Under the pieces are notes generated by a model. The model saw nothing but the letters and a program-made list of their open reading frames with translations. It ran no database searches and had not been told where the DNA came from. The position numbers and the translations under genes are program-made. Below, piece after piece: positions 6,101 to 26,500 of a stretch of DNA of 64,000 nt (its first letter is position 1; each line of letters begins with the position of its first letter). The DNA is from Sipunculus nudus (lineage: Eukaryota; Annelida; Sipuncula; Golfingiida; Sipunculidae): the NCBI GenBank assembly GCA_026874595.1, contig CM049315.1, forward strand, positions 8,428,664 to 8,492,663. The letters are read 5' to 3'.

Positions 6101-7316
6101 TATCGCGTGAATACTGTGGGACCCGTCCCTTCCTCTGAGGCGGCTCCACAGGCCCCATATTCACGACAGCCTCAAATGGACCGGATGCGCCATTGTAACA
6201 CCTTATGTTTGGATCAAAAACAGAATCAAAGTCTCTATGTTTGTCAATGAAAGCCGACCTGATTGCTTCGGGCAAGATGTTGTGGGGGTCAACCTGAATA
6301 TGTTGTGAAAACAAGTCACTGGAGCAAGAGGTCTGGTGCTTGTGTGGTGCCTTTAGAGCGTCAGGGGCCTCATAAGGCCTTTCATCTGTATCGCTGGCAA
6401 GGTCCACAGACAAAGCCCGCACTTGGCACACATGATCATTTTTTCTCACAAGTATGGGTGCCCCAGTTAGGTTTGGAATGCGAAGTTTGTGACCCACGCT
6501 TCGGACAACCTCTGGAGATGGCCACGGCTCACAGCCATGAAATGTCTTGGAAGCACAGTCATAGCGGGGCTCAAGAGCCAAATATTTGTCGTCGCACCCA
6601 ATGTTGGGCGGGATGTCCATTTCAAGGAACTCTCCTGGCCAAACGTTTGTGTTGGCGAGTGGTGCGCGTAATACTTGTGCCCGTCGAATGGAATGCAATT
6701 CCTTAATACCGGACCTTTGAGCATATTCATAGACTGTTCCATCACTGAATATTACCTGATGCTTCGCTGGTCTTACGGCGATATCATTCTGCTCCATAAA
6801 GGGTACCCCAGCAAGGATATCAACATCTAACTGGCTCACTACTAATCCCTCAAAATGGAAGGACTTGTCTTCTCTATGAAAGGTCATTGTAGTCTCACCG
6901 ATGACCTCAAGTGGAGACTGACCATCAGCTTGGTTTGCCATTTGGGATGAATGCTTGATAACTGCTCCCGCCCTTCGAGCGGCTTCACCGCTGATCATAT
7001 TACCTGTGGCACCACAGTCAAGAGTTATGTTTATTGGTGTGTGACCATGAAACATGTTCACCGTAGGGGACGCTTTCACTTTAACGCGTCGTGCTGTAGG
7101 AGTAGATAACTTTCTAAACTCAGGTGACCAACCCTCTTGTGAATCATGTGCCCTGTCTAGATCAACATCAGGAGATAATCCCTCACAATTTGGCTCCTCA
7201 TCATATCCGGAGACCTGTCTTGCTCGTACCATGTACCTTCTGTCACTTTCAGGCAGAAATCTACATTCACTTAGGAAATGCTGATCAGGTCTCCCAGCCT
7301 GAGAGCACAACGGGCA
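3147..7316 (-). CDS. pol: Gag-Pol polyprotein, Pol part (PR-RT-RH-IN)
   Basis: An open frame of about 1390 residues with no stop. Residues counted from the TTG codon at 7308-7310 give these landmarks. A zinc knuckle CPLC-X8-H-X4-C spans the N-terminus. The aspartic protease motif is LDCGATGNM with D98. The RT runs about 400-620, with TDLKS (D487) and IADDMYIGG (D553, D554). RNase H has VTDA (D703), CELEALG (E745), LTDS (D773) and PSDFASR (D821). The integrase zinc site is H950, H955, C985, C988, and the DDE triad is D1017, D1074 and E1110 (in [10 protein letters not shown]). The C-terminus is basic. It would be made by -1 frameshifting from the overlapping gag frame. The protein copies the element RNA and inserts it into the host genome. 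All catalytic residues are present. Confidence 0.9.
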
Positions 7317-7831
7317 TTTTTTTCCAAGCGCCTAGTGCGGGGGCGAGACTGAGGAGTGGGCGCTTTTTGTGAGTATGAGCGGGGTTGCTGGAATCTAGAC
7401 ACCGCAGTACGCATAACTTTTGCATCTTCAACTGTGCGGATCTCGTCCAGCAGCGAAGACAAGGCCTGCGATATCTCTGGTTTAATGGAGGCCAATGTAC
7501 GCGACCGAAGCTCCGTGCCGTATCGTTGCTTGACCAAACGTGGTAGATCTGGGTGAATGAGTCTTAACCAAGTCAGCACGACCAAATTTTCCAAAGTCGG
7601 GGTTAATTCCTCATCTTCATCAATGGATTCACCATGATGGGAGATGCTGCCGGACTTTTTCAATAGACTGTCTTCGATAAAGGCTACAAGACGCTGATAG
7701 AGCCTTTCAGGTCTCTCTTCAGGCTCTAAGTGGAAGTCTGCGAAATCAAGAAAATGACCACCTGTGCGTTGAAAACCATAATATAGGCGAATTGATTCCC
7801 ATATACCGTCGATTGATGTAGAATGAGTCAC
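7271..7831 (-). CDS. gag: Partial Gag, N-terminus missing
   Basis: A 186-codon frame ending at 7271 and overlapping the start of Pol. It has the helix-rich capsid-like character of Gag (for example [13 protein letters not shown] and [17 protein letters not shown]). The annotated start is only a GTG at the truncation point; the true N-terminus lies beyond the junction with repeat R1. In this frame the CCHC-type zinc knuckle is not read: it lies only in the -1 frame, so Gag alone would lack it. The last 15 residues, after the slippery site, are specific to the unshifted product. Confidence 0.75.
7316..7322 (-). promoter_or_regulatory. -1 ribosomal frameshift site between gag and pol
   Basis: Minus-strand heptamer A-AAA-AAT, read in the gag phase as GAA AAA AAT. 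A one-base backward slip gives AAA AAA TGC and enters the Pol frame at the first cysteine of the zinc knuckle. This fits the X-XXY-YYZ rule for tandem slippage. I did not identify a downstream pseudoknot by eye. A sequencing error in the seven-A run is the main alternative. Confidence 0.7.
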
Positions 7832-7844
7832 TATTGTGTTTCTA

Positions 7845-8450
7845 TTGTGTCCCCAAGATCTCCTACCAAGCCAAAAACTGGGTCTATGCGACTCCGTTCC
7901 TTTGAGAAATTAAGGAAAAACCTCAATTTTTTATTAGAAACCTATTTTCACACTTCAGGACTGCCTAATATCAAAACCACTGATCTGACTTTGATCATAT
8001 ATAATATACATATTTTCTATACATTCGCGATGCACATGCCAGGAATGATGTCAGTATTGCGTAATTGTTTTAAGTTATGGGTCCAAACATAATGCACTTT
8101 TTAAAAAATCAAGAAATATATTTACTCCCTGAACAAGAGGATTGCTGAAGCTAGAGATTTTTTGTCAGGGATGTAACATTATTTAATCAAGATTCAATTG
8201 AATACCTAAAATTAGTTTTGAATTTTTCAAATTTTATAAGTTATTAGTATAAATATAAAATTAGTACCATAAATTATGCCCAACTTTGACCATGGCACGT
8301 TTGTTTCCTGAGAGCACTGTTGATATAATTTTCATATCATGCACACATAAGGATTTCATCTTTGTAATTTAGAAAGCTGAAAGAAATTGGCCAAAAATTG
8401 TAACTTTTATTTATGTTTTTATGAGACCATGTCAGACCCAGGCTCTACCC
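7845..8450 (-). repeat. Dispersed repeat family R1, copy B
   Basis: Aligns over most of its length with 430-950: the same AGATCTCCTACC start, GAGAAATTAAGGAAA, AACTTTGACCATGG and ATGAGACCATGTCA blocks, with clear divergence. Its hairpin end is missing on the left, where the truncated retrotransposon begins. Confidence 0.65.
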
Positions 8451-9347: not shown

Positions 9348-9389
9348 ATCCAGATTTAAAAGCCCTCTTTTTCCTGTGAACTTCACATC

Positions 9390-9463
9390 GTCTTGCATGG
9401 TGTAATGGCATTAGTGTTCGAGTACTGAGCCGTGCTGCACAGGATCGATTCCAGCGAGGACCA
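9390..9463 (+). repeat. tRNA-derived SINE head (copy 1)
   Basis: A tRNA-sized block with an A-box-like TGGTGTAATGGC at 9398 and a B-box-like GGATCGATTCC at 9442, ending in GAGGACCA. The 5' and 3' ends pair only partly as an acceptor stem. This fits a SINE promoter region better than a functional tRNA gene. The same block is in the duplicate at 20878-20951. Confidence 0.45.
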
Positions 9464-10413
9464 ACTTCTGCTCTTTCATGTGATATTCATGAATTATAAT
9501 GTATACATGTACTTACACATTTCTGAATAATAATATGTCTTTCATCAACAGATAACGCCGCAGTAGGAAATATAAGAGAAGACAATAAGTAGTAGCAATA
9601 TTTTATTCAGCTGTCCCAAATGTAGGTACTGATTGTAAATTCGCTCCCATTAGAGATCTTTCGATTTAATTTTCTTATGGTATAATTATTTTGATTTCAG
9701 CTAACAGATTCTGAAATTTGAATAAAATTGCCCAAACCTGGACAAGTTTCAGAAGTTTTAAAATAAGGCATTTCATATTTAACTGTATCGTCTGCTGATC
9801 AAGCGTGCATCCCGGGCAAGCTTCACTGGGAGCCAAACTACAAGGCTGCAGGAGCTTTATCAAATCAAATGAGCTAGCTGTCTGGTAACCCAAACAGCTC
9901 CCCCAAACAAGATTTGCGCTTTCAACATGACCAGCATTTGTGAAATTTCATGCGAGTCAGTTCATGAACTTTTCAGTAAAAAAACACAAAAAGCAACTAT
10001 TTCACAATAATCATGTATTATTGGTCGCCCTAAATATTGCTATTTATGTTTATATAGATAGCTTTAAGGACATTAGACGAATGAAAACACGTTTTCACTC
10101 AAACCAGTAGTAAGATGTAATCTTTCCGTTTTGCGTTGTTAAATCAAATTAGTTAATACCAATCATTTAGAGATTTTATTTATTTTATAACATGTTTTCT
10201 TTTAATTAAGTGTAACTTAACCTTTTAAGACTGATCCCTGGCTCCATTTGTATAGTTTCATAGTTTCAGTCATTTATTATATCTGTACTAGATATATTTA
10301 TCCCTCATTGACAGCTGGGCGCCATGGCACTCGGGTCCCGTGTTACCGAGATATCAGGGGAATTTTTTTTCAAGCATATTTTTTTTTTCAATTAATCGGA
10401 GTTAGCACCTATA

Positions 10414-10617
10414 TGTAGTAGGAACAGATTGAATGACTTGCCCATGGGACCGGGACACGTAGTAGGACCCCCCAGTTTTACACCAGAAGACCACCGAGGA
10501 GTGTCGTGTGTATAAGGGCCGAGCGGTAGAGAGCCATCGAGGAGTCCATGTCCGATTGGAGCTGCCTGTTGGCGTGTTTTAGGTCGTACTACGAGGTGAG
10601 ACTACCCACATCTACTA
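10414..10617 (+). repeat. 5' LTR
   Basis: Starts TGTAGTAGGAACAG and ends CCCACATCTACTA, matching the 3' LTR at 18318-18521. The end may extend one or two bases because both copies continue TA. The preceding bases (CCTATA) and those after the 3' LTR (TATA) give a 4-5 bp target-site duplication whose borders blur in AT-rich DNA. Confidence 0.95.
10511..10516 (+). promoter_or_regulatory. TATA-like box in LTR
   Basis: TATAAG lies mid-LTR and is conserved in all three LTR copies (also 18415 and 22003). It is suitably placed to drive transcription into the leader. Confidence 0.5.
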
Positions 10618-10620
10618 TAA

Positions 10621-10635
10621 TGGCGACGAAGGATG
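10621..10635 (+). other. Primer-binding site
   Basis: TGGCGACGAAGG begins 3-4 bases after the LTR. A TGG start is expected for pairing with the CCA end of a host tRNA that primes minus-strand synthesis. The tRNA was not identified. Confidence 0.6.
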
Positions 10636-11210
10636 ATTTGGAGCATGTTTAGCCCCGGTTTTACCTCTTAGATAGTCGGTGGTCGTTGTATCTAAATCTT
10701 AGCTCGGCAAGGAGCCGCCATTTTGCTTGGCGCGCTAGTCAAAAACTTTGGTCCCTTTGCTGACTTCAGCAGTCGAGACAAGCTTTCGTACAGCGTTGTC
10801 TTGTGTTTTCTTAACTGGACAATTAGTTGTTCTTGCCTGTTATTGTACTGGATAGAGCTGTCAATAGTCTTAGTGCTTGCAATAGTCGAATTTCGGTCTT
10901 CTCCATATCGTCTTGATCAGAGCTGTGATCACGTGACCCCGTGTTTCTGGTCAAGATCCCCGAAATTCTTAACTCTGAACGATTTTTTGTCACGTATTTC
11001 TTTGAGTATTGCCCTAGAATATTTCATATTCTTCTCTGCCCCCTTGATTTGCTGCAATTTCTGTGGTAACAGGCAATTTTCCTTTATATACCTTGTTAGG
11101 ATCGGAGTTTGTACGAGTTTATACTCGAATGCTATTACTGTAGTATTAGCCCCTTTTGTAGTTCACAGTCTGCCTGTACTGAGGCCCAATCTTGTATTTT
11201 TAATGTGCAG

Positions 11211-11616
11211 GTAAGATCAAGGTTGTTTGCTGACAAATTTTTTTTTAAGCCGTCAGTAGTAGAAGGTGGGTAAGCAGGGAGCATGAGGTAACCCCATATT
11301 GCTGTTATTGTATTGTGCTTCCACCAAGTTCTTTTATAGTCTACTATAGACTGGACAGGTACCTCTAGTATACTAGATCCCGATACTTTTTGCGTTATTT
11401 TCCATATTCCTCTTTAAACTGTATAGATCAGGACCCTGTGCATGCACTTTGCTGGCTTACTTGCTTGTTCATGTTGGAGAGCCCCTATTATCTTTGTTGT
11501 TGGCTGTGAGACTGGCATTGCTTTTTGCTAACGTTTGCGCATAACTATTTGGCTTGCATTGTTTGTTTTACTAACCATTGAAATTCCTTGCGTGCATTTG
11601 GCTACCTCTCCAACAG
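11211..11616 (+). other. Candidate intron in the element leader
   Basis: The donor ATGTGCAG|GTAAGA and the acceptor CTACCTCTCCAACAG|GA bound 406 bases. Both sites are unchanged in the duplicate (22703-23108). An ATG at 11204 sits seven bases before the donor, and splicing would place it in frame with Gag part 1. Leader introns in LTR elements can serve Gag expression or subgenomic mRNAs. Splicing is predicted only from consensus. Confidence 0.4.
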
Positions 11617-11650
11617 GAGACCTTCCCTGTCCCTTGTTACAACTGGCACC

Positions 11651-11989
11651 ATGGCTCAGTTTCAAAATTCTATTGATGTCAGTTCTGCTTCGATGTCCCA
11701 ATTGGTCACCTATTTCACGGATATGCTGTCCCCAGCCACTATCCACCACATTGTTCGGTTGCGTGAGTCAACCCCTGATTTTGGCCTACCTGATTTGGCT
11801 AATGCTACTGGTCTAGCTTTAACCTTTTGGGGGCGTCTTTCCCGGGAAGGCAAGATTCGTCTTTCGGGTAAGACGGGTGGGCCCCCAAATCCCGGCCCAA
11901 CCGATTCCTCCATAGATCGAATTCTTCATGCACTTCCTACCGAAGCTGTATATGTCCCGCCACCTAATACTAGAGGGAGGGGAGTGTAG
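11651..11989 (+). pseudogene. gag: Gag part 1
   Basis: Begins at ACCATGG (good initiation context), MAQFQNSIDVSS. It runs 112 codons to a TAG at 11987. The frame is open upstream to 11588 and would join the ATG before the leader intron if that is spliced. The next part of Gag lies in another frame. The stop and frame changes are identical in the duplicate, so they predate the duplication. They may be ancestral decay or programmed recoding. Confidence 0.6.
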
Positions 11990-12018
11990 GAGGTGACTGT
12001 TTACCCAAGTCTAGAGGT

Positions 12019-12303
12019 GTGGGAATGCGAAGTGGTCCCAGCGTAGACCAAACCCAGCCTGAACTCAGTCGTCATGCTGGAGCCCCCAGTAATGAAGGTA
12101 GTGGTCCAGGTTCAACGGCTGGATATTCCCAGCAAGGTATGAGCAACCTTGAAGTGTTAACGATGATTGGGAATCCAGGTCCTCTGTCCACCCAGGGCGA
12201 TATTAGGGGGGAAGTATACTATCAAGGAACAAATGAGGGTTTTGACCCGGCTACAGGTCCCGCTTTAAGCGTGCGTCGGACTTTTCTGCCCCCTTACCAG
12301 TGA
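12019..12303 (+). pseudogene. gag: Gag part 2 (shifted frame)
   Basis: A 94-codon frame rich in Gly, Pro, Ser and Thr, typical of a disordered Gag linker. It ends at a TGA that overlaps the next frame by four bases. Its upstream ATG follows the part 1 stop by 29 bases. It is conserved exactly at 23511-23795. Confidence 0.5.
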
Positions 12304-13559
12304 AATCACGCCCGGGCACTCAACCGGCCTCAGGTAATGTGGGTCCCGATAATCACACACACCGGGAGGCGTACGACCAGGGCGTCCTCTGGGCTCAGCC
12401 TACTAGATCCAGCCGAGTTAGCAACAAGAAACGGTCTTCAAGGCCTACGAAGAGTGTAGACAGACACTCAAGGCGTCGCCAGCATAGGGCCAGTTCCTCT
12501 GAGTCAAGCGACTCAACCTCGGAAGAACGTGGCGGCACACGGCCCCGTAAGAAGCATCACCGGCGTCGGGCTAGGTCCATTAGCTTTAGTGATGGTTCGA
12601 GGCATAGGAGAAGGGATAACCGAGCCAGTTCTTACTCCGAAGATTCAGAATACTCTTGTTCACCTCACCGCCATGGCGTCAGAAGGAGGGGAAGGAGCCC
12701 AGACATCATGAAGTTAGGCACCTTCACAGGCGATAGGAATTGGAGTGGTTTCTTCTTCCAGTTCCAGAGGTTGGCAGACAGACGCGGATGGTCTAGACAC
12801 AAGAAGGCAGAAAAATTTGTCGACTCCCTTGGTGGGAGGGCACTTGATTATGTCAGAGAGCTTGAATTGGAAGGTGACTACAAACGCTTAACTGAGAAGT
12901 TAGAGCAACGTTTCGGCATGAGAGATGCACCTATCACAGTGCGAAGGGAGCTTCAGTTTGCAAGACAGGAGGACCAGGAGACCCTGGAGGAGTTTAGCGA
13001 AGGGGTTCACGTCCATGTTATAAACGGTTTCCGGGGCGCTACAGAAGATTCAATTCAACAGCTCGCCATTGAATACTTCCTGAGGGGATGCGGCAACAAG
13101 AAAGCAGCAGTTAGTGCCATGGGAAGGAACCCAAAATACCTCCACAAAGCTCTTCAATACGTGAAGGATGCCATCAACAACCACCGAGCCATTTATAGGA
13201 AGACACACATAGCCCGTAAAACGGTAACGTTTGCCGAGAGTGCAACGTCAGATATGGAAGGTCAAGTTGACACAAAGCAGGCCCAGTCGACAATATCTGA
13301 AAGGGTCAACCCGCGGAATGGCACACAACCCGAAACCAGCGACCAGGCCTGGGCGCAAATGAACAAACGCATTGACAGTTTGGAAGGATTGATCAAGAAA
13401 GCCTTGATGGTGTCCAGACCTAGATCTGTAAGCCCAAGTAGGCCCCAACTAAAGCCTGCTAATAGCGTCTGCTACAAATGCAATCAGCGGGGACATTTTC
13501 AGAAACAATGTCCAAATATGAGGGCAATCCTGCCCATAAGGAACCAGAACAGGGTTTAA
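12300..13559 (+). CDS. gag: Gag part 3: RS-rich, capsid and zinc knuckle
   Basis: 419 codons. Residues about 20-135 are strongly Arg/Ser-rich (SSRPTKSVDRHSRRR, KKHHRRRARSISFSDGSRHRR), resembling RS domains of splicing factors. Residues about 137-290 are a capsid domain (MKLGTFTGDRNWSGFFFQFQ and EKLEQRFG), then a CCHC knuckle CYKCNQRGHFQKQC near the C-terminus (spacing CX2CX4HX4C). It packages element RNA into particles. The track start is a GTG, so translation probably enters from part 2 by recoding, or the frame is broken. The equivalent in the second copy is cut at codon 133. Confidence 0.8.
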   Translation: MKSRPGTQPASGNVGPDNHTHREAYDQGVLWAQPTRSSRVSNKKRSSRPTKSVDRHSRRRQHRASSSESSDSTSEERGGTRPRKKHHRRRARSISFSDGSRHRRRDNRASSYSEDSEYSCSPHRHGVRRRGRSPDIMKLGTFTGDRNWSGFFFQFQRLADRRGWSRHKKAEKFVDSLGGRALDYVRELELEGDYKRLTEKLEQRFGMRDAPITVRRELQFARQEDQETLEEFSEGVHVHVINGFRGATEDSIQQLAIEYFLRGCGNKKAAVSAMGRNPKYLHKALQYVKDAINNHRAIYRKTHIARKTVTFAESATSDMEGQVDTKQAQSTISERVNPRNGTQPETSDQAWAQMNKRIDSLEGLIKKALMVSRPRSVSPSRPQLKPANSVCYKCNQRGHFQKQCPNMRAILPIRNQNRV

Positions 13560-13761: not shown

Positions 13762-14316
13762 GTGTGCCAAACTCAAGGACTAACGTTAGTAGCCCCAGTT
13801 AAGATAAACGGGATTGACACCCAGGCTGTGATCGACAGTGCGTCTCAAATCACTGTGATCAGCCTCAGCTTTTATGATAGTCAACCCGAGAAGCCTATAT
13901 GCACAGGCACAGCCACCCTGAAAGGGATTGGCGGGGATGATTCGGCGCTAACAGCAGAGCGCGCCCCTGACACAACTATCCAGTTCGGTAAGAAAGCGTA
14001 CCATTGGCCAGTGTACATAGCCAAAATATCAGATTCAGTGCTTCTTGGTCTAGACTTTCTACTGGCACAAAAGTGCACGGTTAATTTAGAAAACAAAACT
14101 GTAAGCTTACCGGGAGAGTTAGTACAGGCTTCAATCCGGACAAGTCCAGATAACGATATCTGTGGATGTTCAGTAGTCACTGTAGCGCGGAGGGTGCTGC
14201 AACCCAATGCGGTTAGCACCATCCCTATAAGAGTCCTTAGTTGCAGAGTTGAAAATTGCGCTGTGGGGGCGCTGTGCCGGTTCCACCAATGCCAGTGCCC
14301 ACTGTCAGACGTGTAG
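13762..14316 (+). pseudogene. pro: Retropepsin-like protease with altered active site, broken pol
   Basis: A frame with VKINGIDTQAVIDSASQITVIS and, later, LLGLDFLLAQKCTVNL, the two hallmarks of a retroviral-type aspartic protease. The usual D-(S/T)-G triad reads D-S-A here, so the catalytic glycine is replaced by alanine and activity is doubtful. The frame differs from Gag part 3. After about 14256 it runs into sequence that is no longer protease-linker or RT, and stops. Confidence 0.7.
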
Positions 14317-14492
14317 AGGAGCTTGCTAACTATGACTTTAAGATCGTGCACCGGGCAGGCAATAAGCATTGCAACGCGGACGGCCTTTCCAGAATTCCAG
14401 CACCGCCATGTGAATGCTACAGTGCAGGAGCTCGTACCCAAGACCTCCCTTGTAAGGGGTGTCAGCACTGCCAGAGAGCAAGTGAAAAGTGA
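14256..14492 (+). pseudogene. RNase H C-terminal remnant
   Basis: Contains YDFKIVHRAGNKHCNADGLSR, the conserved end of a Ty3/gypsy RNase H, then a cysteine-rich linker (CKGCQHC). No RT sequence precedes it, so an internal deletion of roughly 1.5-2 kb (estimated from usual domain lengths) removed RT and most of RNase H. A one-base frame change follows at about 14489. Confidence 0.8.
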
Positions 14493-15385
14493 TCCGATTC
14501 ACAGAAGATGTAGATGATGTGGTTCCTTTGGCAGTCAGGACGTGTGAACTCGGGGTTACAGCCGGAGATACAGCTGGTGAAGAGGAACCTGGAGATGTGA
14601 GAGAAACTGACGGTTCCTCAGATGCATCTGGATGCCCTACAGCCACTGATTCAGGCAGTGAAGTGTCCGACACAGAATCCAACCCGGACCAGACGCCTAA
14701 TTGGCTGGAAGCTTACTCTTCTAATCAGCTGATAGAGATGCAGGATGCTGACCCAGACCTAAAGCCCTTGGTATTGTGGTTGGACAATGGAGAGCCGAAG
14801 CAGGCAGAACTGCTCCTAACTAGTCCTGCAGTAAAATCTTTGTGGGCATATAGGTCCCAATTGCAGTTGAGGGGCGGTGTCCTCCATTATATGTGGGAAG
14901 GCGATGATGGGGCACACCCCTTGTTGGTGGTCCCTGAGGGTTTAAAACAGGAAATCCTTGAACTTTGCCATGGCTGCCCCACGGCTGGGCACCTAGGAAG
15001 AGATAAGACCTTGGCACGCCTCCGTAGGTCCTTTTTCTGGCACAATATGGTCAGAGACTGTGCACTGTATGTGGCACAGTGTCAAGTCTGCAACCGACAT
15101 AAACGGCCTGTTAGAACTGCAAAAGCAGGATTAGTCAACTATCATTCCGGATATCCAATGGAACGTGTGCATCTGGACGTCCTTGGGCCATTTACAACAA
15201 GCACACAGGGGAACTCTTACGTCTTAATGATGTGCGACCAATTCTCCAAATGGCTTGAGTGTGCTGCTGTTCCTGACCAGACAGCGGAGACCATGGCCAA
15301 ACAATTCATCATGCATTTCGTCACCACCTTTGGTTGTCCTCTAATCGTTCACCACGATCAAGGCCGCAATTTCGAACCTGTTTAA
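14489..15385 (+). pseudogene. int: Integrase, N-terminal zinc and core part
   Basis: After an acidic linker, residues about 150-205 carry the HHCC zinc site (ELCHGCPTAGH, AQCQVCNRHK). The catalytic core follows, with HLDVLGPF (first Asp) and IVHHDQGRNFE (second Asp). It stops directly after the second Asp because of a small deletion near 15377; the rest continues in another frame from about 15385. Confidence 0.85.
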
Positions 15386-15401: not shown

Positions 15402-16364
15402 ATGGGTATAGCCAAGACTAGGACTACGCCCTACCACCCCTCTTCAAATGGCCAGGTTGAACGGCAAAACAGGAACGTGTTGCAGATGGTGCGGTGTATG
15501 ATCCAAGGCCGAACTCGGGAGTGTGACGAAGATCTACCACTCGTCGTTATGGCTCTGCACTCGATGGTCAGTCGAATGACAGGGTTCTCTGCAAATCAAA
15601 TTATGCTGGGACGCGAGGTTTATCAACCCACCGATTTGATACTTGGTATGAATACAAATGAGCCCAGCCATACTCCTGAGAGCTGGGTCCATAACCTCAC
15701 GAAGCGTATGGAGGCCATTAACCATCGTGTGCGGGAGAAGTTGAAAGGTAACCTTGAGCATCAAAAACAACTGTACGACATTCTCATAAGAGAGGATCGT
15801 TTTGGAATGGGTGATGTGGTTTACCTCCGTGACAGGTCAACAAAGAAGGGGCAAAGCCCGAAGCTTCAACCCATCTGGAAAGGGCCTTATTTAGTAGTTA
15901 AGGAAAAGCCTCCATTGTATTTGGTCAGGACAAAGAAAAAGGAGTCCTACCATCAGCACAACAACCTGAAGCGTTGTGCAGACGGCTTTCTTCCCCATTG
16001 GCTACGAAGAGCTCGCGCCCAGTTATTCCATCAGGAAACCGCCGCCTTACTAGATCAGTCTGAATCCATTCCTGAATCCTCTGATGTAGGTCAAGATCAG
16101 GCAGGGTCCTCAGGGTCAGCACTGACCTCGTCGGGGGAACCTGCAGTAGCTGTTGCAGCCTCAGAGGGCGCCCTTGGTAGTGATCCCGCCGTTTCGGATC
16201 CTAGTTGCAGTATAACTGAAGATATTCCAAAGGGAAGTCCAGAGCCTCTTTCTGAGTGCCAGGATTCAGGGATCTCGCCACTAGACTCACCAGCCCATAG
16301 CAACAGGGAGTCAAGGCGTAAGTGCGGGAAGCCGGCTTATCTTAAGGATTATCTTATGCCATAG
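15402..16364 (+). pseudogene. int: Integrase, C-terminal part
   Basis: Continues the core with RTTPYHPSSNGQVERQNR (the third catalytic residue, Glu) and a GPY-type module IWKGPYLVVKEKPPLYLV. A Ser/Pro-rich tail ends CGKPAYLKDYLMP. No chromodomain is seen. With the preceding fragment it makes one integrase broken by a single frameshift. Confidence 0.85.
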
Positions 16365-16390: not shown

Positions 16391-16660
16391 GGCGTTGCCA
16401 CTTATTGTTATTTAGAGTTACATTTTGTAGAGCGATGGAAGACCCAGAGAGTCCTAGGGGAGGACAGATTTGTTCCCATTTGTGAGCCCGTTCCTGGGGC
16501 TAAATCCGGTGCTACTGGCAGCAGCAGGAAGTCCAGGCGCCAACACATGTGCCAACTGACCATTTGCTCTGGTGGCACCACCCCTTCACAGCATGCTGGA
16601 CGTGCAGAGTCCAGGAGTCGTCCAAATGTTTCCTTAGGCTTAGGCATACAGGGGTTGGAT
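16391..16660 (+). pseudogene. Possible frameshifted N-terminus of the TatD ORF
   Basis: From about 16391 a different frame is open through 16690 and reads like a basic, Ser-rich linker (for example GATGSSRKSRRQ). The frame of the TatD ORF itself has an ATG at 16435 (after TTTTGTAG|AGCG, acceptor-like) but stops at 16483 and 16498. One frameshift near 16640-16670, or two stop mutations, could explain either reading. Confidence 0.3.
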
Positions 16661-17862
16661 GCAAAAAGTTTGCTGATAGTAGTCTGTTGAAAGACCTGTG
16701 GGGATTATGGGTATACCAGTTCATCCAGTTCATTACCCAAAAATTAGGCCTGAGTGAACCCTCTGATCTCAAGGCGTATATCCTTCAACACCAGTTGCAT
16801 AACCCTAATCCTCATCCGCCAGGGTTTAACGAGGAAGAGCAGGTACTCTTGGCCAAGGTAGCTTCTAAGTACGGATGGGAGGTACCCAGTGTGTTTAGTG
16901 CTAGGCCCCCTAACTCGGAAATCTGTGTGATTCACTGGGATGTTCTAATGAGGCTTTTAGCCACACTTCCAGTTGATACTAGGTCTGCCATCTCAGGGTT
17001 CGTCCCCGACTCTAACACTCATGCCCCAGTAGTAGGCATCATAGATTCACACTGCCACCTTGACGTCATGCTTAGCAGGGCAGATGCCAGGTCTCTAGCA
17101 CAGTTCGAAGCCTCAGTGGGTGAGCCAGAGCGAGCGGTCTTAGGCATGGTTTCGAACTTTGTGTTCCCTCATTACTGGGATAGTCACCTTAGTTTGTCTG
17201 GGGACCGACGTATAAAGTGTTCTTTCGGTGTCCACCCTCGCCTCATCAAGTCCAGGGCAGCTCGCCAACAGCAGTTATTGTCGCTTGAGCACCTTATGGC
17301 CTTACCTTCCTGTTTAGCTTTGGGTGAAGTGGGGCTAGAATTCACTCATACTAGCACTAGGGAACAGCTTTTGCAGACTGGGTTCATCAGGGAGGTTCTT
17401 AGTCTTCTGCGCCGGGAGGATTTCCAGTCCAAGGTCCTCATTCTCCACTGTAGGGATTACGGCTCGGGGGAGGCGGCTAGACAAGCCTTAGCCATGCTGT
17501 TGGATTCTGGGTTGCAAGGACATAAGATCCACCTTCTTTGTTTCTCAGGGAATAAAGACGAGTCAGAGACGTGGGTTAGTTGTCTTCCGAATTGTTACTT
17601 CGGGTTCACATCTACAGTACGTAGAAGTCAGGAAACAGAGGAAGCAGTATCGGTAGTGCCTCTTGACCGAATCCTAGTCGAGTCCGACAGTCCATACCTC
17701 GCTGCTTCCCCATGGCATCTCGGAGAGCTGGTTAAGTATTTGGCCCAGTTGAGAAGGCTACCAGTAGAAACATTTGCGACGCACTGCAACGCTAATGCAC
17801 AGGAGCTGTACGGAGCCTTTCCGGAGGGTACAGCCGATGTCTGCGATGCAACCCCTCGGTGA
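16549..17862 (+). CDS. TatD-family metal-dependent nuclease inside LTR element
   Basis: 437 codons. Residues 160-425 are a TatD-type amidohydrolase barrel. Visible elements are IIDSHCHLD (H168, H170), FGVHP (H229), ALGEVGLE (E260), ILHCRD (H300), CFSG at 331-334 and ILVESDSPYLA (D380). In the family a histidine precedes CFSG and binds metal; here it is L330, explicable by one A-to-T change (CAT to CTT). TatD enzymes are Mg-dependent DNases/exonucleases, and the closest animal type I recall is TATDN2-like. The N-terminal 160 residues match nothing I know. It sits between integrase and polypurine tract, on the element strand, inside both LTRs, so it is element cargo in the env position. The true N-terminus may start at ATG 16435 or in another frame. 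Confidence 0.85.
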   Translation: MPTDHLLWWHHPFTACWTCRVQESSKCFLRLRHTGVGCKKFADSSLLKDLWGLWVYQFIQFITQKLGLSEPSDLKAYILQHQLHNPNPHPPGFNEEEQVLLAKVASKYGWEVPSVFSARPPNSEICVIHWDVLMRLLATLPVDTRSAISGFVPDSNTHAPVVGIIDSHCHLDVMLSRADARSLAQFEASVGEPERAVLGMVSNFVFPHYWDSHLSLSGDRRIKCSFGVHPRLIKSRAARQQQLLSLEHLMALPSCLALGEVGLEFTHTSTREQLLQTGFIREVLSLLRREDFQSKVLILHCRDYGSGEAARQALAMLLDSGLQGHKIHLLCFSGNKDESETWVSCLPNCYFGFTSTVRRSQETEEAVSVVPLDRILVESDSPYLAASPWHLGELVKYLAQLRRLPVETFATHCNANAQELYGAFPEGTADVCDATPR

Positions 17863-18303
17863 GTCCTCTGAGAGTATTCGTACAGCTAGTTACCCTTGTC
17901 AGTTGTACTTTAGTGGGAAAAGCTCTCTTCGTTTATAGTTCTTTTCATAGTTCACTTGTTATTACCTGTAGGGCAAGGTTTGGTTGAGACAGTTTACACT
18001 TACTAAGTTTAGTAGCTGTACAGTGTACAACGGATGCATTGCCAATGTCTGCGGGGCAAGCCTCGATGACCCTTCTGACTTTGTACAGCTGATTGTCCCT
18101 TAGGGCATCACTAGATAGGTCATGTTGTTCCAAGCCAGAGTAATTTAGACCTTTGGTCGACAGGGTAATTTTAGTGTTCAGTGTTCAGTGTACAGTCCAG
18201 TTTGATTACTTTGTCCAGTTGTTAGCCACTAACATTCAATATCCATAGTCTTGGGATATAGTCGCCTCAGTCTATTCTTTTGGAAGATGGGCTCACCTCT
18301 CAC
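17863..18303 (+). other. 3' untranslated region of the LTR element
   Basis: No frame of interest lies between the TatD stop and the polypurine tract; it is AT-rich and without recognised motifs. Confidence 0.5.
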
Positions 18304-18317
18304 AAAAAGGGGAGGGA
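18304..18317 (+). other. Polypurine tract
   Basis: AAAAAGGGGAGGGA immediately precedes the TG start of the 3' LTR, as expected for the plus-strand primer. Confidence 0.9.
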
Positions 18318-18521
18318 TGTAGTAGGAACAGATTGAATGACTTGCCCATGGGACCGGCACCCGTAATAGGACCCCCCAGTTTTACACCAGAAGACCACCG
18401 AGGAGTGTCGTGTGTATAAGGGCCGAGCGGTAGAGAGCCATCGAGGAGTCCATGTCCAATTGGAGCTGCCTGTTGGCCTGTTTGAGGTCGTACTACGAGG
18501 TGAGACTACCCACATCTACTA
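18318..18521 (+). repeat. 3' LTR
   Basis: Same length as the 5' LTR. By eye it differs at six sites (three near 18358-18369, one near 18459, two near 18478-18485). That is about 3%, far more than the ~0.4% between the duplicated copies. Confidence 0.95.
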
Positions 18522-19389
18522 TATATACTTACTTTAGTGATTATAACTTATGTTTTGGTAACAAAAGGTGATGATTGGGATATTTCAAGGGTTAGTGATA
18601 GTACCCAGATCTCAATGACTATGTCATTACTTGTGACAAACTGGGGGAACTGTAAGCTTTCAAGGGTAATGGTTATTAAACGCTCACATATTACTGACAA
18701 GCACCATTCATTTGTAACCAGCATGTAATGGGAGCTTTTAAAGGGTTACAGTAAGTACCTGCATCTCAGTTGCAATTATTGTATAACATGGGACAAACAA
18801 GATGAATTAAAATCATTCAAGAGTTAGGGCTTTTTCTCACGTATCAGGAAAAGAATTGATTGATTGAAACATTATGTGATGAAAAGGTTCCTACAATGGG
18901 TAGGAGTAGTACCCACATCTCCACATACCCACTGCCGGTAAAGCTGTTTTCCTTATTACAAACTTGGTGAATTGTGAACTTACAATGATCAATGTTATGA
19001 CTTGAATATATCAACGACAAAGACGGATATTTATACAAAAGTGATTTATGGAATTTTTTCAATCGTTAAGAGTTACTTCAGTGATCATCACTATTGTTTG
19101 GCTAATTTAACATATAGTAATATCTACTCACTTATTCTGGCCTGTCCCGTAATGTCTACTGGCTGGTCTGCCAGTAATAGGGTCATACATCAGATACCTT
19201 CCAGGATGTCAACTCTGTACTTTTATATAATTCCTATATATGAAATACATTAATGCTTATTCGACAAGAACGTTGAAGTCCTTTTATCCTTCCAGTTGCA
19301 AATTATTTGGTCAATAGCTACTCAAAATATTAAAATCCTGTCATTCTGCTAGTTTATTACTATCAACAATTAATTAAACTAGACGAATT
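18522..19389. other. AT-rich noncoding flank
   Basis: No gene is seen. Loosely repeated phrases (AGTACCCA(G/C)ATCTC near 18600 and 18905, AAGTACCTGCATCTC near 18754) suggest old degenerate tandem units. Confidence 0.4.
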
Positions 19390-20690: not shown

Positions 20691-21904
20691 GCAAGAATTA
20701 AACTACTCAAAAACCTTCAACTTTGATCTTGAATGCATTCATGAAAACATTTAGAAAATATCCATTTTCAAAGCCTTTCTTTTTACCTGTTATTTCATTC
20801 AAGTATTCAAGTTCATGGAGTTTTGGAGTATTTGGATCCAGATTTAAAAGCCCTCTTTTTCCTGTGACCTTCACATCGTCTTTCATGGTGTAATAGCATT
20901 AGTGTTCGAGTACTGAGCCGTGCTGCACAGGATCGATTCCAGCGAGGACCAACTTCTGCTCTTTCATGTGATATTCATGAATTATAATGTATACATGTAC
21001 TTACACATTTCTGAATAATAATATGTCTTTCATCAACAGATAACGCCGCAGTAGGAAATATAAGAGAAGACAATAAGTAGTAGCAATATTTTATTCAGCT
21101 GTCCCAAATGTAGGTACTGATTGTAAATTCGCTCCCATTAGAGATCTTTCGATTTAATTTTCTTATGGTATAATTATTTTGATTTCAGCTAACAGATTCT
21201 GAAATTTGAATAAAATTGCCCAAACCTGGACAAGTTTCAGAAGTTTTAAAATAAGGCATTTCATATTTAACTGTATCGTCTGCTGATCAAGCGTGCATCC
21301 CGGGCAAGCTTCACTGGGAGCCAAACTACAAGGCTGCAGGAGCTTTATCAAATCAAATGAGCTAGCTGTCTGGTAACCCAAACAGCTCCCCCAAACAAGA
21401 TTTGCGCTTTCAACATGACCAGCATTTGTGAAATTTCATGCGAGTCAGTTCATGAACTTTTCAGTAAAAAAAACACAAAAAGCAACTATTTCACAATAAT
21501 CATGTATTATTGGTCGCCCTAAATATTGCTATTTATGTTTATATAGATAGCTTTAAGGACATTAGACGAATGAAAACACGTTTTCACTCAAACCAGTAGT
21601 AAGATGTAATCCTTCCGTTTTGCGTTGTTAAATCAAATTAGTTAATACCAATCATTAAGAGATTTTATTTATTTTATAACATGTTTTCTTTTAATTAAGT
21701 GTAACTTAACCTTTTAAGACTGATCCCTGGCTCCATTTGTATAGTTTCATAGTTTCAGTCATTTATTATATCTGTACTAGATATATTTATCCCTCATTGA
21801 CAGCTGGGCGCCATGGCACTCGGGTCCCGTGTTACCGAGATATCAGGGGAATTTTTTTTCAAGCATATTTTTTTTTTTTCAATTAATCGGAGTTAGCACC
21901 TATA

Positions 21905-22109
21905 TGTAGTAGGAACAGATTGAATGACTTGCCCATGGGACCGGGACACGTAGTAGGACCCCCCCAGTTTTACACCAGAAGACCACCGAGGAGTGTCGTG
22001 TGTATAAGGGCCGAGCGGTAGAGAGCCATCGAGGAGTCCATGTCCGATTGCAGCTGCCTGTTGGCGTGTTTTAGGTCGTACTACGAGGTGAGACTACCCA
22101 CATCTACTA
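21905..22109 (+). repeat. LTR of duplicate copy
   Basis: Differs from the 10414 LTR by only one extra C and one G-to-C change. The primer-binding site follows at 22113. Confidence 0.95.
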
Positions 22110-22702
22110 TAATGGCGACGAAGGATGATTTGGAGCATGTTTAGCCCCGGTTTTACCTCTTAGATAGTCGGTAGTCGTTGTATCTAAATCTTAGCTCGGC
22201 AAGGAGCCGCCATTTTGCTTGGCGCGCTAGTCAAAAACTTTGGTCCCTTTGCTGACTTCAGCAGTCGAGACAAGCTTTCGTACAGCGTTGTCTTGTGTTT
22301 TCTTAACTGGACAATTAGTTGTTCCTGCCTGTTATTGTACTGGATAGAGCTGTCAATAGTCTTAGTGCTTGCAATAGTCGAATTTCGGTCTTCTCCATAT
22401 CGTCTTGATCAGAGCTGTGATCACGTGACCCCGTGTTTCTGGTCAAGATCCCCGAAATTCTTAACTCTGAACGATTTTTTGTCACGTATTTCTTTGAGTA
22501 TTGCCCTAGAATATTTCATATTCTTCTCTGCCCCCTTGATTTGCTGCAATTTCTGTGGTTACAGGCAATTTTCCTTTATATACCTTGTTAGGATCGGAGT
22601 TTGTACGAGTTTATACTCGAATGCTATTACTGTAGTATTAGCCCCTTTTGTAGTTCACAGTCTGCCTGTACTGAGGCCCAATCTTGTATTTTTAATGTGC
22701 AG

Positions 22703-23108
22703 GTAAGATCAAGGTTGTTTGCTGACAAATTTTTTTTTAAGCCGTCAGTAGTAGAAGGTGGGTAAGCAGGGAGCATGAGGTAACCCCATATTGCTGTTAT
22801 TGTATTGTGCTTCCACCAAGTTCTTTTATAGTCTACTATAGACTGGACAGGTACCTCTAGTATACTAGATCCCGATACTTTTTGCGTTATTTTCCATATT
22901 CCTCTTTAAACTGTATAGATCAGGACCCTGTGCATGCACTTTGCTGGCTTACTTGCTTGTTCATGTTGGAGAGCCCCTATTATCTTTGTTGTTGGCTGTG
23001 AGACTGGCATTGCTTTTTGCTAACGTTTGCGCATAACTATTTGGCTTGCATTGTTTGTTTTACTAACCATTGAAATTCCTTGCGTGCATTTGGCTACCTC
23101 TCCAACAG
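22703..23108 (+). other. Candidate leader intron (copy 2)
   Basis: Same GTAAGA donor and CAACAG acceptor as 11211-11616, and the same 406-base length. Confidence 0.35.
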
Positions 23109-23142
23109 GAGACCTTCCCTGTCCCTTGTTACAACTGGCACC

Positions 23143-23481
23143 ATGGCTCAGTTTCAAAATTCTATTGATGTCAGTTCTGCTTCGATGTCCCAATTGGTCA
23201 CCTATTTCACGGATATGCTGTCCCCAGCCACTATCCACCACATTGTTCGGTTGCGTGAGTCAACCCCTGATTTTGGCCTACCTGATTTGGCTAATGCTAC
23301 TGGTCTAGCTTTAACCTTTTGGGGGCGTCTTTCCCGGGAAGGCAAGATTCGTCTTTCGGGTAAGACGGGTGGGCCCCCAAATCCCGGCCCAACCGATTCC
23401 TCCATAGATCGAATTCTTCATGCACTTCCTCCCGAAGCTGTATATGTCCCGCCACCTAATACTAGAGGGAGGGGAGTGTAG
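23143..23481 (+). pseudogene. gag: Gag part 1 (copy 2)
   Basis: Identical to the first copy except for one Thr-to-Pro change (CTACC to CTCCC region near 23430). Same TAG stop. Confidence 0.6.
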
Positions 23482-23510
23482 GAGGTGACTGTTTACCCAA
23501 GTCTAGAGGT

Positions 23511-23795
23511 GTGGGAATGCGAAGTGGTCCCAGCGTAGACCAAACCCAGCCTGAACTCAGTCGTCATGCTGGAGCCCCCAGTAATGAAGGTAGTGGTCCA
23601 GGTTCAACGGCTGGATATTCCCAGCAAGGTATGAGCAACCTTGAAGTGTTAACGATGATTGGGAATCCAGGTCCTCTGTCCACCCAGGGCGATATTAGGG
23701 GGGAAGTATACTATCAAGGAACAAATGAGGGTTTTGACCCGGCTACAGGTCCCGCTTTAAGCGTGCGTCGGACTTTTCTGCCCCCTTACCAGTGA
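23511..23795 (+). pseudogene. gag: Gag part 2 (copy 2)
   Basis: Identical protein to 12019-12303, with the same TGA overlap with the next frame. Confidence 0.5.
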
Positions 23796-24208
23796 AATCA
23801 CGCCCGGGCACTCAACCGGCCTCAGGTAATGTGGGTCCCGATAATCACACACACCGGGAGGCGTACGACCAGGGCGTCCTCTGGGCTCAGCCTACTAGAT
23901 CCAGCCGAGTTAGCAACAAGAAACGGTCTTCAAGGCCTACGAAGAGTGTAGACAGACACTCAAGGCGTCGCCAGCATAGGGCCAGTTCCTCTGAGTCAAG
24001 CGACTCAACCTCGGAAGAACGTGGCGGCACACGGCCCCGTAAGAAGCATCACCGGCGTCGGGCTAGGTCCATTAGCTTTAGTGATGGTTCGAGGCATAGG
24101 AGAAGGGATAACCGAGCCAGTTCTTACTCCGAAGATTCAGAATACTCTTGTTCACCTCACCGCCATGGCGTCAGAAGGAGGAGAAGGAGCCCACCCTGCA
24201 AACAATAA
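23792..24208 (+). pseudogene. gag: Gag part 3, cut off (copy 2)
   Basis: Retains the Arg/Ser-rich region, then breaks at codon 133. It ends after four residues encoded by the satellite element. Capsid and zinc knuckle are lost. Confidence 0.85.
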
Positions 24209-26500
24209 TGCGTTCTAAAAACGTCCTCACAACATTTTAGTTAGGTTCGGATAACATTATTCTGAAACGTTCTGTGCACGCAAAAATGTATGGTTTTATG
24301 TACGGACTGTGAACGTAAAATCAGACGTTCGTTGCCGTTGTTTTTATTACGTGTTTGCAACGTTTTATCAAGTCGTTGTAGTTATGTTAAGAATACGTCT
24401 AATAAACGTTTGCTCCTAGTACAATGCTAACGTGTAAGCAACATTTCTGTTAAAACGTTCTGTGCACGCAAAAATGTATGGTTTTATGTACGGTCTGTGA
24501 ACGTAAAATCAAACGTTCGTTGTCGTAGTTTTTATAACGTGTTTGCAACGGTCATCAAGTCGTTGTAGTAATGTTTGGAAAACGTCTGATAAACGTTCGC
24601 TATTAGCATAATGCTAACGTGTAAGCAACATTTCTGTTAAAACGTTCTGTGCACGCAAAAATGTATGGTTTTGTGTACGGACTTTGAACATAAAATCAAA
24701 CGTTCGTTGTCGTTTTTATAACGTGTTTGCAACGGTCATCAAGTCGTTGTAATTATGTTAAGAATACGCCTTATAAACGTTTGCTCTAAGTATAATGCTA
24801 ATGTGTAAGCAATATTTCTGTTAAAACGTTCTGTGCACGCAAAAATGTATGGTTTTATGTACGGACTGTGAACGTAAAATCAAACGTTCGTTGTCGTTGT
24901 TTTTATTACGTGTTTGCAACGGTCATCAAGTCGTTGTAGTAATGTTAGGAAAACGTCTCATAAACGTTTGCTCCTAGTACAATGCTAATGTGTAAGCAAC
25001 ATTTCTGTTAAAACGTTCTGTGCACGCAAAAATGTATGGTTTTATGTACGGTCTGTGAACGTAAAATCAAACGTTCGTTGTCGTAGTTTTTATAACGTGT
25101 TTGCAACGGTCATCAAGTCGTTGTAGTAATGTTAGGAAAACGTCTGATAAACGTTCGCTATTAGTATAATGCTAACGTGTAAGCAACATTTCTGTTAAAA
25201 CGTTCTGTGCACGCAAAAATGTATGGTTTTGTGTACGGACTTTGAACATAAAATCAAACGTTCGTTGTCGTTGTTTTCATTACGTGTTTGCAACGGTCAT
25301 CAAGTCGTTGTAATTATGTTAAGAATACGCCTTATAAACGTTTGCTATAAGTATAAAGCTAATGTGTAAGCAACATTTATGTTAAAACGTTCTGTGCACG
25401 CAAAAATGTATGGTTTTATGTACGGACTGTGAACGTAAAATCAAACGTTCGTTGTCGTTTTTATTACGTGTTTGTGACGTTCATCAAGTCGTTGTAGTAA
25501 TGTTAGGAAAACGTCTCATAAACGTTTGCTGTTAGTATAATGCTAACGTGTAAGCAACATTTCTGTTAAAACGTTTTGTGCACGCAAAAATGTATGGTTT
25601 TGTGTACGGACTTTGAACATAAAATAAAACGTTTGTTGTCGTTGTTTTTATTACGTTTTTGCAACGTTTCATCAAGTAGTTGTAGTTGCGTTAAGAATAC
25701 GTGTCATAAACGTTTGGTCTTTGTATAATGCTAACGTGTAGGAAACATTTCCGTTAAAACGTTCTGTGCACGCAAAAATGTATGGTTTTATGTACGGACT
25801 TTGAACGCGAAGCCAAACGTTCTTTGTTGCGTTTTTATAACGTGTCCGCAATGTTCATATAATCGTTGCAGTAATGTTGGGAATACGTCTAACCAACATT
25901 TGCTCTTAATTATAATGATAACATGTAAGCAACGTTTCTGTTAAAACGTTCTTAGCACATACAAATGTATGGTTTTTTTTGTACGGACTTTGAATGTAAA
26001 ACCAAACGTCCTTTGTCATCGTTTTTATTACGTGCCTGCAATGTTTCATTAAATCATTAGAGTTATGTTTGGAATACGTCTCACCGACGTTTGTTCTTAG
26101 GTATAATGATAACATGTTAGAAACGTTTCTGTTAGAACGTTCTTAGCACATACTAATGTATGGTTTTATGTACGGACTTTGATCGTAAACCCTAACGTTC
26201 TTCATAGTTTTTATTTCTTGTATGAAAAGTTTCACTTTATCTTTGTAGATACGCTGGGAATGTCTCATACATATTTGCTCTTAGTTTAATAAAGTGTTAG
26301 CAACATTTTTGATAACGTTCTTTGGTCACATAAATGTGGTTTTATCTACGGAATATTTAACGTAAGATAACACCTTCTTTGTCGACGATTTTCTCATGAA
26401 TCTACAACGTTTCACAATGTTGTTGCAGTTACGTTGGGAATACATCCCATCAATGTTTGCTCCTAAGTATAATGATAACATGTTAACGATATTCTTAAAA
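24194..26500 (+). repeat. Satellite-bearing element, ~187-bp units with trimeric order
   Basis: Starts CCCTGCAAAC, a MITE-like terminus. About 13 units follow; CGTTCTGTGCACG-type anchors lie at 24268, 24456, 24643, 24827, 25014, 25201, 25388, 25572, 25760, 25947, 26138 and 26316. The variable part cycles GTCTNATAAACGTTTGCTCC, GTCTGATAAACGTTCGCTAT, GCCTTATAAACGTTTGCT with a 558-561-bp period (24456-25014-25572). Each unit is studded with AACGTT or ACGT. Units decay from 25900 on, and no right terminus is seen. Short frames inside (for example minus 25906-26115) are not genes. Confidence 0.9.

What the first reader, a model, noticed from the sequence alone, without database searches (positions are those of the whole stretch)
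16549..17862. TatD nuclease carried as cargo in the env position of an LTR retrotransposon
A full TatD-type hydrolase domain (HCH, GEVGLE, LHCR, ESDSPY motifs) lies after integrase and before the polypurine tract, on the same strand and inside both LTRs. TatD proteins are normally cellular DNases. Large TATDN2-like families in invertebrate genomes may therefore be partly retrotransposon genes. A nuclease could process element cDNA, act on competing DNA, or counter host DNA sensing; these roles are inference.
Basis: partly seen in the sequence, partly recalled or inferred. Interest (0 to 1): 0.9.

Follow-up and report, generated by a model that had tools for sequence, protein, structure and literature searches.

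The report
TatD nuclease gene inside LTR retrotransposons
A whole group of virus-like jumping genes in this animal genome carries its own copy of a DNA/RNA-cutting enzyme of a kind normally found in cells, and has kept it through long diversification, although some members have lost it and the copy in this window is a dead one.

Summary
ORF 16549-17862 is a TatD-type hydrolase (PF01026, E 3e-36) between integrase and the polypurine tract/3' LTR of a Ty3/gypsy-type element. It is not a lone insertion. In the host's own 1.43-Gb genome, 17 of 19 LTR pairs found for this family enclose TatD between integrase and 3' LTR, and 67 of 85 TatD loci, down to about 30% identity, have gypsy pol upstream (18 not tested). 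TatD and integrase diverged together (Mantel r 0.876). The 20 element TatDs in the tree form one clade, outside the host's intron-containing TATDN2-like gene; the source gene is unresolved. Shared variants (21) suggest purifying selection, close to that on pol. The gene is a separate third ORF with its own ATG and an added Cys/His N-terminal module; splice-like signals are suggestive. TatD is dispensable in cis: some copies of this family, and apparently most integrase relatives of a second lineage, lack it. The window copy is degenerate: reverse transcriptase deleted, integrase frame broken, Cys/His module removed, a metal-ligand histidine replaced. Captured ORF3 enzymes have precedents; a TatD one was not found in the papers searched. 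Function is inferred.

The parts
10414..10619 (+). 5' LTR (206 bp), TGTAGTAG...CTACTATA, preceded by TATA (10410-10413)
   Evidence: 97.1% identical to the 3' LTR
10593..10601 (+). splice-donor-like site in the LTR (GT at 10596)
   Evidence: found by pattern scan only, with a second pattern match at 11208; not the best-scoring site of relative L010 in the shuffle test; suggestive only
10621..10635 (+). probable primer-binding site just after the 5' LTR
   Evidence: position and sequence; matching tRNA not tested
12300..13559 (+). gag ORF with CCHC zinc knuckle
   Evidence: PF00098 E 5.6e-6
13762..14316 (+). aspartic protease part of pol
   Evidence: PF13650 E 7.2e-6
14314..14316 (+). junction of an internal deletion that removed reverse transcriptase and most of RNase H
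   Evidence: blastn against relative L010 jumps from its position 829 to 2220; 19 of 20 fetched relatives keep RT-length spacing
14489..15385 (+). integrase, first part (H2C2 zinc binding and rve)
   Evidence: PF17921 E 7.9e-20, PF00665 E 2.2e-8
15402..16364 (+). integrase, second part, in another frame (frame broken in this copy)
16402..16430 (+). two pyrimidine/AG stretches, splice-acceptor-like, before the ORF3 start
   Evidence: in relative L010 88 of 500 shuffles score as high, so weak
16435..16437 (+). ATG that starts ORF3 in relatives; here the frame breaks soon after
16531..16558 (+). site where the N-terminal Cys/His module of ORF3 is deleted in this copy
   Evidence: alignment with relatives
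16549..17862 (+). TatD ORF as reported (open from 16504); TatD domain about 17041-17814
   Evidence: PF01026 E 3.2e-36, residues 165-422
17863..18303 (+). 3' untranslated region
   Evidence: matched in 20 of 20 fetched copies
18304..18317 (+). polypurine tract
   Evidence: AAAAAGGGGAGGGA directly before TG of the 3' LTR
18318..18523 (+). 3' LTR, followed by TATA (18524-18527)
20836..24193 (+). duplicated fragment: 1 kb of flank, 5' LTR and gag start of the same insertion
   Evidence: 99.55% identical to 9348-12701

Best explanation
This is a defective member of a diverse clade of Ty3/gypsy-type LTR retrotransposons whose ancestor captured a TatD nuclease, possibly a TATDN2-type cellular one, as a third gene (ORF3) after pol. 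Shown here: the position in most copies examined, one clade of element TatDs, co-divergence with integrase, a bias against amino-acid changes in family A, conserved catalytic motifs, a separate ORF, and absence from some sublineages. Inferred: ORF3 is translated from a spliced subgenomic mRNA, as env is in retroviruses; its N-terminal Cys/His module binds nucleic acid; the TatD domain then acts, mostly in trans, as a metal-dependent nuclease on single-stranded 3' ends or RNA-DNA hybrids, either cleaning up the element's own replication or integration intermediates or removing host nucleic acids that restrict it. I think processing of the element's own RNA/DNA intermediates slightly more likely (about 0.45) than counter-defence (about 0.35). 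The confidence below is for the shown part; the enzymatic mechanism as a whole I hold at about 0.6.
For: Order PR-IN-TatD-UTR-LTR in 20 of 20 fetched family copies, RT-length spacing in 19 of 20. 17 of 19 LTR pairs found enclose TatD, including all 9 pairs whose two LTRs are both identical to the query. Pol upstream in 6 of 6 further loci at 31-41% TatD identity and, by tblastn, in 19 of 20 more (integrase 18, RT/RNase H only 1); the remaining one keeps a pol-like tail read by eye. Mantel r 0.876 over 23 taxa, 0 of 2000 permutations as high. 20 of 20 element TatDs in the tree in one clade, support 0.81. Shared variants 8 nonsynonymous to 13 synonymous against a neutral 2.40, p 0.002; pol 27 to 58. 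Open ORF3 frames: 12 of 19 family-A copies L010-L028 with the 505-codon frame and no stop; in family B 10 copies without a stop, with at least one broken copy besides. Separate start 70-247 nt after the pol stop, another frame, 6 of 6 loci. Cys and His of the N-terminal module invariant in 6 of 6 lineages.
Against: TatD is not needed in cis: 2 of 19 LTR pairs and locus L075 lack it; 8 of 30 family-A integrase loci and 25 of 27 L031-like ones have no TatD hit nearby. In the tree the nearest neighbour of the element clade is a bacterial protein (3gg7), not the host gene, and support for the host gene's place is 0.29; best structural matches by sequence are bacterial, so the source is open. Splice signals are only suggestive (acceptor beats shuffles clearly in 2 of 6). 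The Cys/His module has no Pfam zinc-finger match over cut-off. No expression or activity data. TatD shared variants number only 21 and are linked by descent; the window lineage shows dN/dS near 0.5.
Confidence: 0.85

Rival explanations
1. ORF3 TatD is a counter-defence factor: it degrades host nucleic acids or small-RNA/R-loop structures that restrict the element, acting in trans for the family.
For: Bias against amino-acid change yet absence from copies that kept LTRs and integrase, as expected of a trans-acting accessory; an accessory enzyme proposed to face host surveillance is known from orchid gypsy AlkB (passages of PMC9289625); human TATDN2 is described as an RNA 3' exonuclease/endonuclease that resolves R-loops (passage of PMC12709183).
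Against: No host target known; the same retention pattern fits any trans-acting helper.
Confidence: 0.35
2. The captured gene came from a bacterium (or another distant source) rather than from a host TATDN2 gene.
For: Nearest neighbour of the element clade in the tree is bacterial 3gg7; best sequence matches among solved structures are bacterial; QatD and TIGR00010 models match below their cut-offs.
Against: HRHCF motif shared with the host's intron-containing gene and not with the five other cellular proteins aligned; 3gg7 sits on a long branch.
Confidence: 0.25
3. Passive cargo: a gene carried along by chance and not selected.
For: Absent from some copies that retain integrase and LTRs; few shared variants.
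Against: Persistence over lineages at about 39% mean TatD identity, open frames in many copies, low N/S of shared variants, catalytic motifs mostly conserved.
Confidence: 0.05
4. Several independent captures of TatD genes by different elements.
For: Tree support for one clade is moderate (0.81) and cellular sampling is thin.
Against: Shared N-terminal Cys/His module, a shared 5-residue insertion after the CRD motif (19 of 20 element, 0 of 6 cellular sequences), co-divergence with integrase.
Confidence: 0.08
5. TatD acts as a domain of pol (integrase fusion) inside the particle.
For: It directly follows integrase.
Against: Pol ends in a stop, 70-247 nt separate it from the ORF3 start, and the two are in different frames in 6 of 6 loci examined. 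In L032 the ORF3 frame does run on from integrase remnants, after a deletion.
Confidence: 0.03

Closest known systems
Bdelloid rotifer LTR retrotransposons Vesta/Juno with DEDDy exonuclease or GDSL esterase ORF3 (Rodriguez et al. 2017, PMC5408684; abstract, section 3.3 and Discussion read)
   Same: Enzymatic, non-envelope ORF3 in LTR retrotransposons, including a 3'-5' exonuclease type
   Different: Other nuclease fold (DEDDy, not TatD); the paper reports no significant departure from neutrality within genomes, whereas a bias against amino-acid change is seen here; there ORF3s are missing from the earliest branches
Orchid Ty3/gypsy elements with an AlkB m6A demethylase ORF (PMC9289625; passages read)
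   Same: Captured nucleic-acid enzyme as an additional ORF of gypsy elements
   Different: Different enzyme; described there as a recent acquisition, with activity shown in vitro; here many divergent lineages of one animal genome, no assay
Cellular TATDN2 (and TATDN1/3, bacterial TatD)
   Same: Same TatD domain and catalytic motifs; HRHCF motif shared with the host's intron-containing gene
   Different: Intron-less, element-borne, extra Cys/His N-terminal module, insertion after the CRD motif, one clade apart from the six cellular sequences sampled
env of errantiviruses and retroviruses (recalled; envelope acquisitions mentioned in PMC12440569, passages read)
   Same: Third gene between pol and 3' LTR, splice-like signals
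   Different: No envelope found; an enzyme instead

Membership tests
Ty3/gypsy-type LTR retrotransposon | Paired LTRs with target-site duplication | tested here: met
   206-bp LTRs and TATA direct repeat in the window; 19 LTR pairs found in the genome, their target-site repeats not examined
Ty3/gypsy-type LTR retrotransposon | Pol order PR-RT-RH-IN | tested here: met
   Read in one open frame in L010; RT-length spacing in 19 of 20 copies; RT absent in the window copy. RT was recognised by eye, not by Pfam
Ty3/gypsy-type LTR retrotransposon | Placement in a named gypsy clade by RT tree | not tested
   No reference set of clades was at hand
TatD nuclease family | PF01026 domain over its curated cut-off | tested here: met
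   125.5 bits against cut-off 27
TatD nuclease family | Metal-ligand residues HxH, E, H, H, D | tested here: met
   In relatives: E in 19 of 20, H of CRD motif 17 of 20, H of HCF motif 19 of 20, D 18 of 20 aligned sequences; L032 has N for the second H of HxH. Not met in the window copy, which has Leu at the HCF histidine. That these are the ligands is recalled
TatD nuclease family | Nuclease activity | not testable with these tools
   needs an assay
TATDN2 subtype | Closer to TATDN2 than to TATDN1, TATDN3 or bacterial TatD | tested here: inconclusive
   HRHCF motif shared only with the host's TATDN2-like gene among six cellular sequences, but the tree puts bacterial 3gg7 nearest and the host gene's place has support 0.29; the name TATDN2 for that gene rests on recall
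Enzymatic ORF3 element (rotifer Vesta/Juno kind) | Non-envelope enzyme ORF between pol and 3' LTR in several lineages | tested here: met
   After pol in several lineages; 3' LTR located by paired LTRs in family A only; LTR-like sequence after ORF3 read by eye in L029-L032
env-bearing retroelement | Transmembrane fusion glycoprotein ORF3 | tested here: not met
   In 3 ORF3 proteins scanned, Pfam gives TatD and sub-threshold matches, no envelope; no transmembrane prediction was run

The most novel reading that the evidence does not exclude
A long-lived clade of animal gypsy elements uses a captured TATDN2-type nuclease, joined to a Cys/His nucleic-acid-binding module and expressed from a spliced mRNA in the env position, as a trans-acting accessory enzyme against host restriction of RNA-DNA intermediates; many annotated 'TATDN2-like' gene expansions in invertebrates would then be retrotransposon genes.
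Probability: 0.35. Interest if true: 0.87.

Novelty: new variant of a known kind. Interest (0 to 1): 0.72.

Why it matters
It adds a nuclease of a different fold to the short list of enzymes captured by LTR retrotransposons, with evidence in one genome for one clade, long retention, selection and loss. It warns that 'TATDN2-like' multigene families in animal genomes can be element genes: in the giant squid paper TATDN2 is listed among the non-Hox genes of the Hox cluster, together with a pogo-derived gene (PMC6962438, section and figure legend read). It also gives TatD-bearing and TatD-less sister copies in which the gene's role can be asked.

Tried and rejected
Rejected readings: lone gene insertion; integrase-TatD fusion; the window's partial copy as an independent insertion. 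A first idea that nine integrase loci at 43-46% identity were TatD-less outgroups was withdrawn: six of them are 80-86% identical to the integrase of TatD-bearing L031, so they suggest loss of TatD in that lineage. A confirming search with the L031 TatD did not complete. AlphaFold2 on the window protein alone gave mean pLDDT 38.7 and was not used. Searches for relatives in viral contigs and genome contigs found none; those collections hold viral and prokaryote contigs. Literature: searches; none listed a paper that I recognised as describing a TatD gene inside an LTR element (0 papers; 14 papers hold 'tatd' and 'retrotransposon'; passages read in two, the other 12 judged by title and abstract start). 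Most subscription papers, bioRxiv and Repbase were not covered.

Full report
What was claimed and whether it is there. Pfam gives TatD_DNase at E 3.2e-36 over residues 165-422 of ORF 16549-17862, with integrase (H2C2 E 7.9e-20, rve E 2.2e-8) and aspartic protease upstream on the same strand, and a CCHC gag. The LTRs are 10414-10619 and 18318-18523, 97% identical, flanked by TATA, with a polypurine tract at 18304-18317.

State of the window copy. It does not look like a working gene. A deletion with its junction at 14314-14316 removed reverse transcriptase and most of RNase H; integrase is broken into two frames. ORF3 is frame-shifted soon after its ATG at 16435, its Cys/His module is deleted, and the histidine of the HCF motif is leucine. 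A near-identical RT-less copy lies about 59 kb downstream (L009), and a partial piece lies in the window at 20836-24193 inside a 99.55% identical duplication with 1 kb of flank. Copies with an open ORF3 exist elsewhere.

Is it a lone insertion? The host genome is held (1.43 Gb, unnamed). A TatD protein search gave 102 matches, 96 of 252 candidates being scored; merged by hand they are 85 loci. I fetched 20 close family copies besides the window's (family A; two more with over 85% identity were not fetched). All 20 show protease, integrase, TatD, 3' UTR and LTR in order, and 19 of 20 keep RT-length spacing. An LTR search (40 of 64 candidates scored, the window's LTRs not among them) gives 19 LTR pairs; 17 enclose TatD just before the 3' LTR, most in an element of about 9.7 kb (range 9.6-12.0); all nine pairs whose LTRs are both identical to the query are among them.

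Other lineages. Six loci at 31-41% TatD identity all have pol upstream: integrase core in four (L029, L030, L031, L034), an integrase tail in L033, RT/RNase H in L032. Of 20 further upstream stretches, 18 have integrase and one has RT/RNase H only by tblastn; the last (L039) showed no match but keeps a pol-like C-terminal tail before the ORF3 start, read by eye. By coordinates, 57 of the 85 loci have integrase within 5.5 kb upstream; ten more have pol by the sequence evidence above, so 67 of 85; the other 18 were not tested.

Where TatD is missing. Among 102 integrase loci from two searches, 62 have a TatD hit within 5.5 kb downstream: 22 of 30 family-A loci, 38 of 40 in intermediate lineages, 2 of 27 loci with at least 70% identity to the L031 integrase (L031 itself included), and 0 of 5 distant ones. 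Two family-A LTR pairs are 8.28 and 8.31 kb and hold no TatD match. In L075 most of the coding sequence is missing through a deletion of about 1.4 kb. The three fit one deletion in size, but it was read directly in one locus only. So TatD can be lost from elements that keep LTRs and integrase. The TatD searches did not score all candidates (96 of 252, 150 of 171), and the L031-like absence was not confirmed with a query from that lineage.

One clade, long co-inheritance. Over 23 loci, distances of integrase and TatD correlate with r 0.876 (246 pairs, 0 of 2000 permutations as high; 0.865 without L028 and L009). In a FastTree of 20 element TatDs (L009, L070, L071 and L073 left out, the last three as too short) with the host gene, TATDN1, TATDN3 and three bacterial proteins, the 20 form one clade (support 0.81). 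The host gene (L035, at least four coding pieces read by eye, HRHCFTG motif; called TATDN2-like from recall) lies outside. Against a simple host origin, the nearest neighbour is bacterial 3gg7 on a long branch, and the node with the host gene has support 0.29. A five-residue insertion after the CRD motif is in 19 of 20 element and 0 of 6 cellular sequences. I infer one capture; its source is open.

Selection. Mean dN over mean dS is 0.34 over 171 pairs of 19 copies, dead copies included; the window copy against L010 gives 0.48. Variants shared by two or more copies are 8 nonsynonymous and 13 synonymous in TatD against a neutral expectation of 2.40 to 1 (p 0.002), and 27 to 58 in pol; singletons are nearer to neutral, 72 to 51 and 180 to 115. 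Sites are linked by descent, so p is approximate. TatD diverged less than UTR and LTR between copies (0.0128 against 0.0202 and 0.0213).

Anatomy of ORF3. In 6 of 6 loci examined (5 lineages) it starts 70-247 nt after the pol stop and in another frame; the ATG was chosen by me from the conserved N terminus, and L031, L033 and L034 have an earlier in-frame ATG. Its N terminus holds CxxC...H...H followed by a CxxC pair, invariant in 6 of 6 lineages. Pfam gives no zinc finger over cut-off in the 3 proteins scanned, so zinc binding is inference. Donor-like sites occur in the LTRs of 4 of 4 lineages (3-23 of 500 shuffles score as high; reverse strands score 3.9-9.6 against 9.9-11.3), the end of one LTR being unknown; acceptor-like sites before the ATG are strong in 2 of 6 (matrices recalled). 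The best donor of L010 is not the site listed for the window. This fits a spliced subgenomic mRNA but does not prove it.

Likely function. Per the introduction of PMC12709183 (passages), E. [quoted passage not shown] Catalytic residues are present in 17 to 19 of 20 aligned element copies, by residue. Retention with loss suggests an enzyme usable in trans. My choice is processing of the element's RNA-DNA or ssDNA intermediates, with counter-defence a close rival.

Known or new. Enzymatic ORF3s are known in rotifer LTR elements (PMC5408684) and orchid gypsy elements (PMC9289625). In the held library no paper that I recognised as describing a TatD ORF in an LTR element was listed. Hence: new variant of a known kind.

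Noticed in passing
window 9348-12701 and 20836-24193; C10:8503006-8507316 (L002): Segmental duplication (99.55%) of the insertion with its flank, plus a further RT-less copy about 59 kb downstream: local amplification of one dead element, or an assembly effect.
   Followed up: partly
window 3150-7909, minus strand: Another LTR-type gag-pol with a 1394-codon open frame (read by eye); no TatD match in the window other than the one reported.
   Followed up: no
window 55439-57137: LINE-type reverse transcriptase frames (read by eye).
   Followed up: no
window 24253-26500, 44993-48364, 53411-55569: Satellite-like tandem arrays seen in the self-comparison.
   Followed up: no
G000 contigs C61-C89: Ten TatD matches with E below 1e-60 on high-numbered contigs, probably bacterial contigs in the assembly (inference).
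   Followed up: no
L039 (C7:62426184-62427884): LTR-like sequence shared with L032, then only a pol-like tail, then ORF3: an internally deleted element that still keeps the TatD gene (read by eye).
   Followed up: partly
integrase loci with at least 70% identity to L031: Sublineage with 25 of 27 loci without a TatD hit; several matches stop near the same integrase position, suggesting a shared rearrangement.
   Followed up: partly
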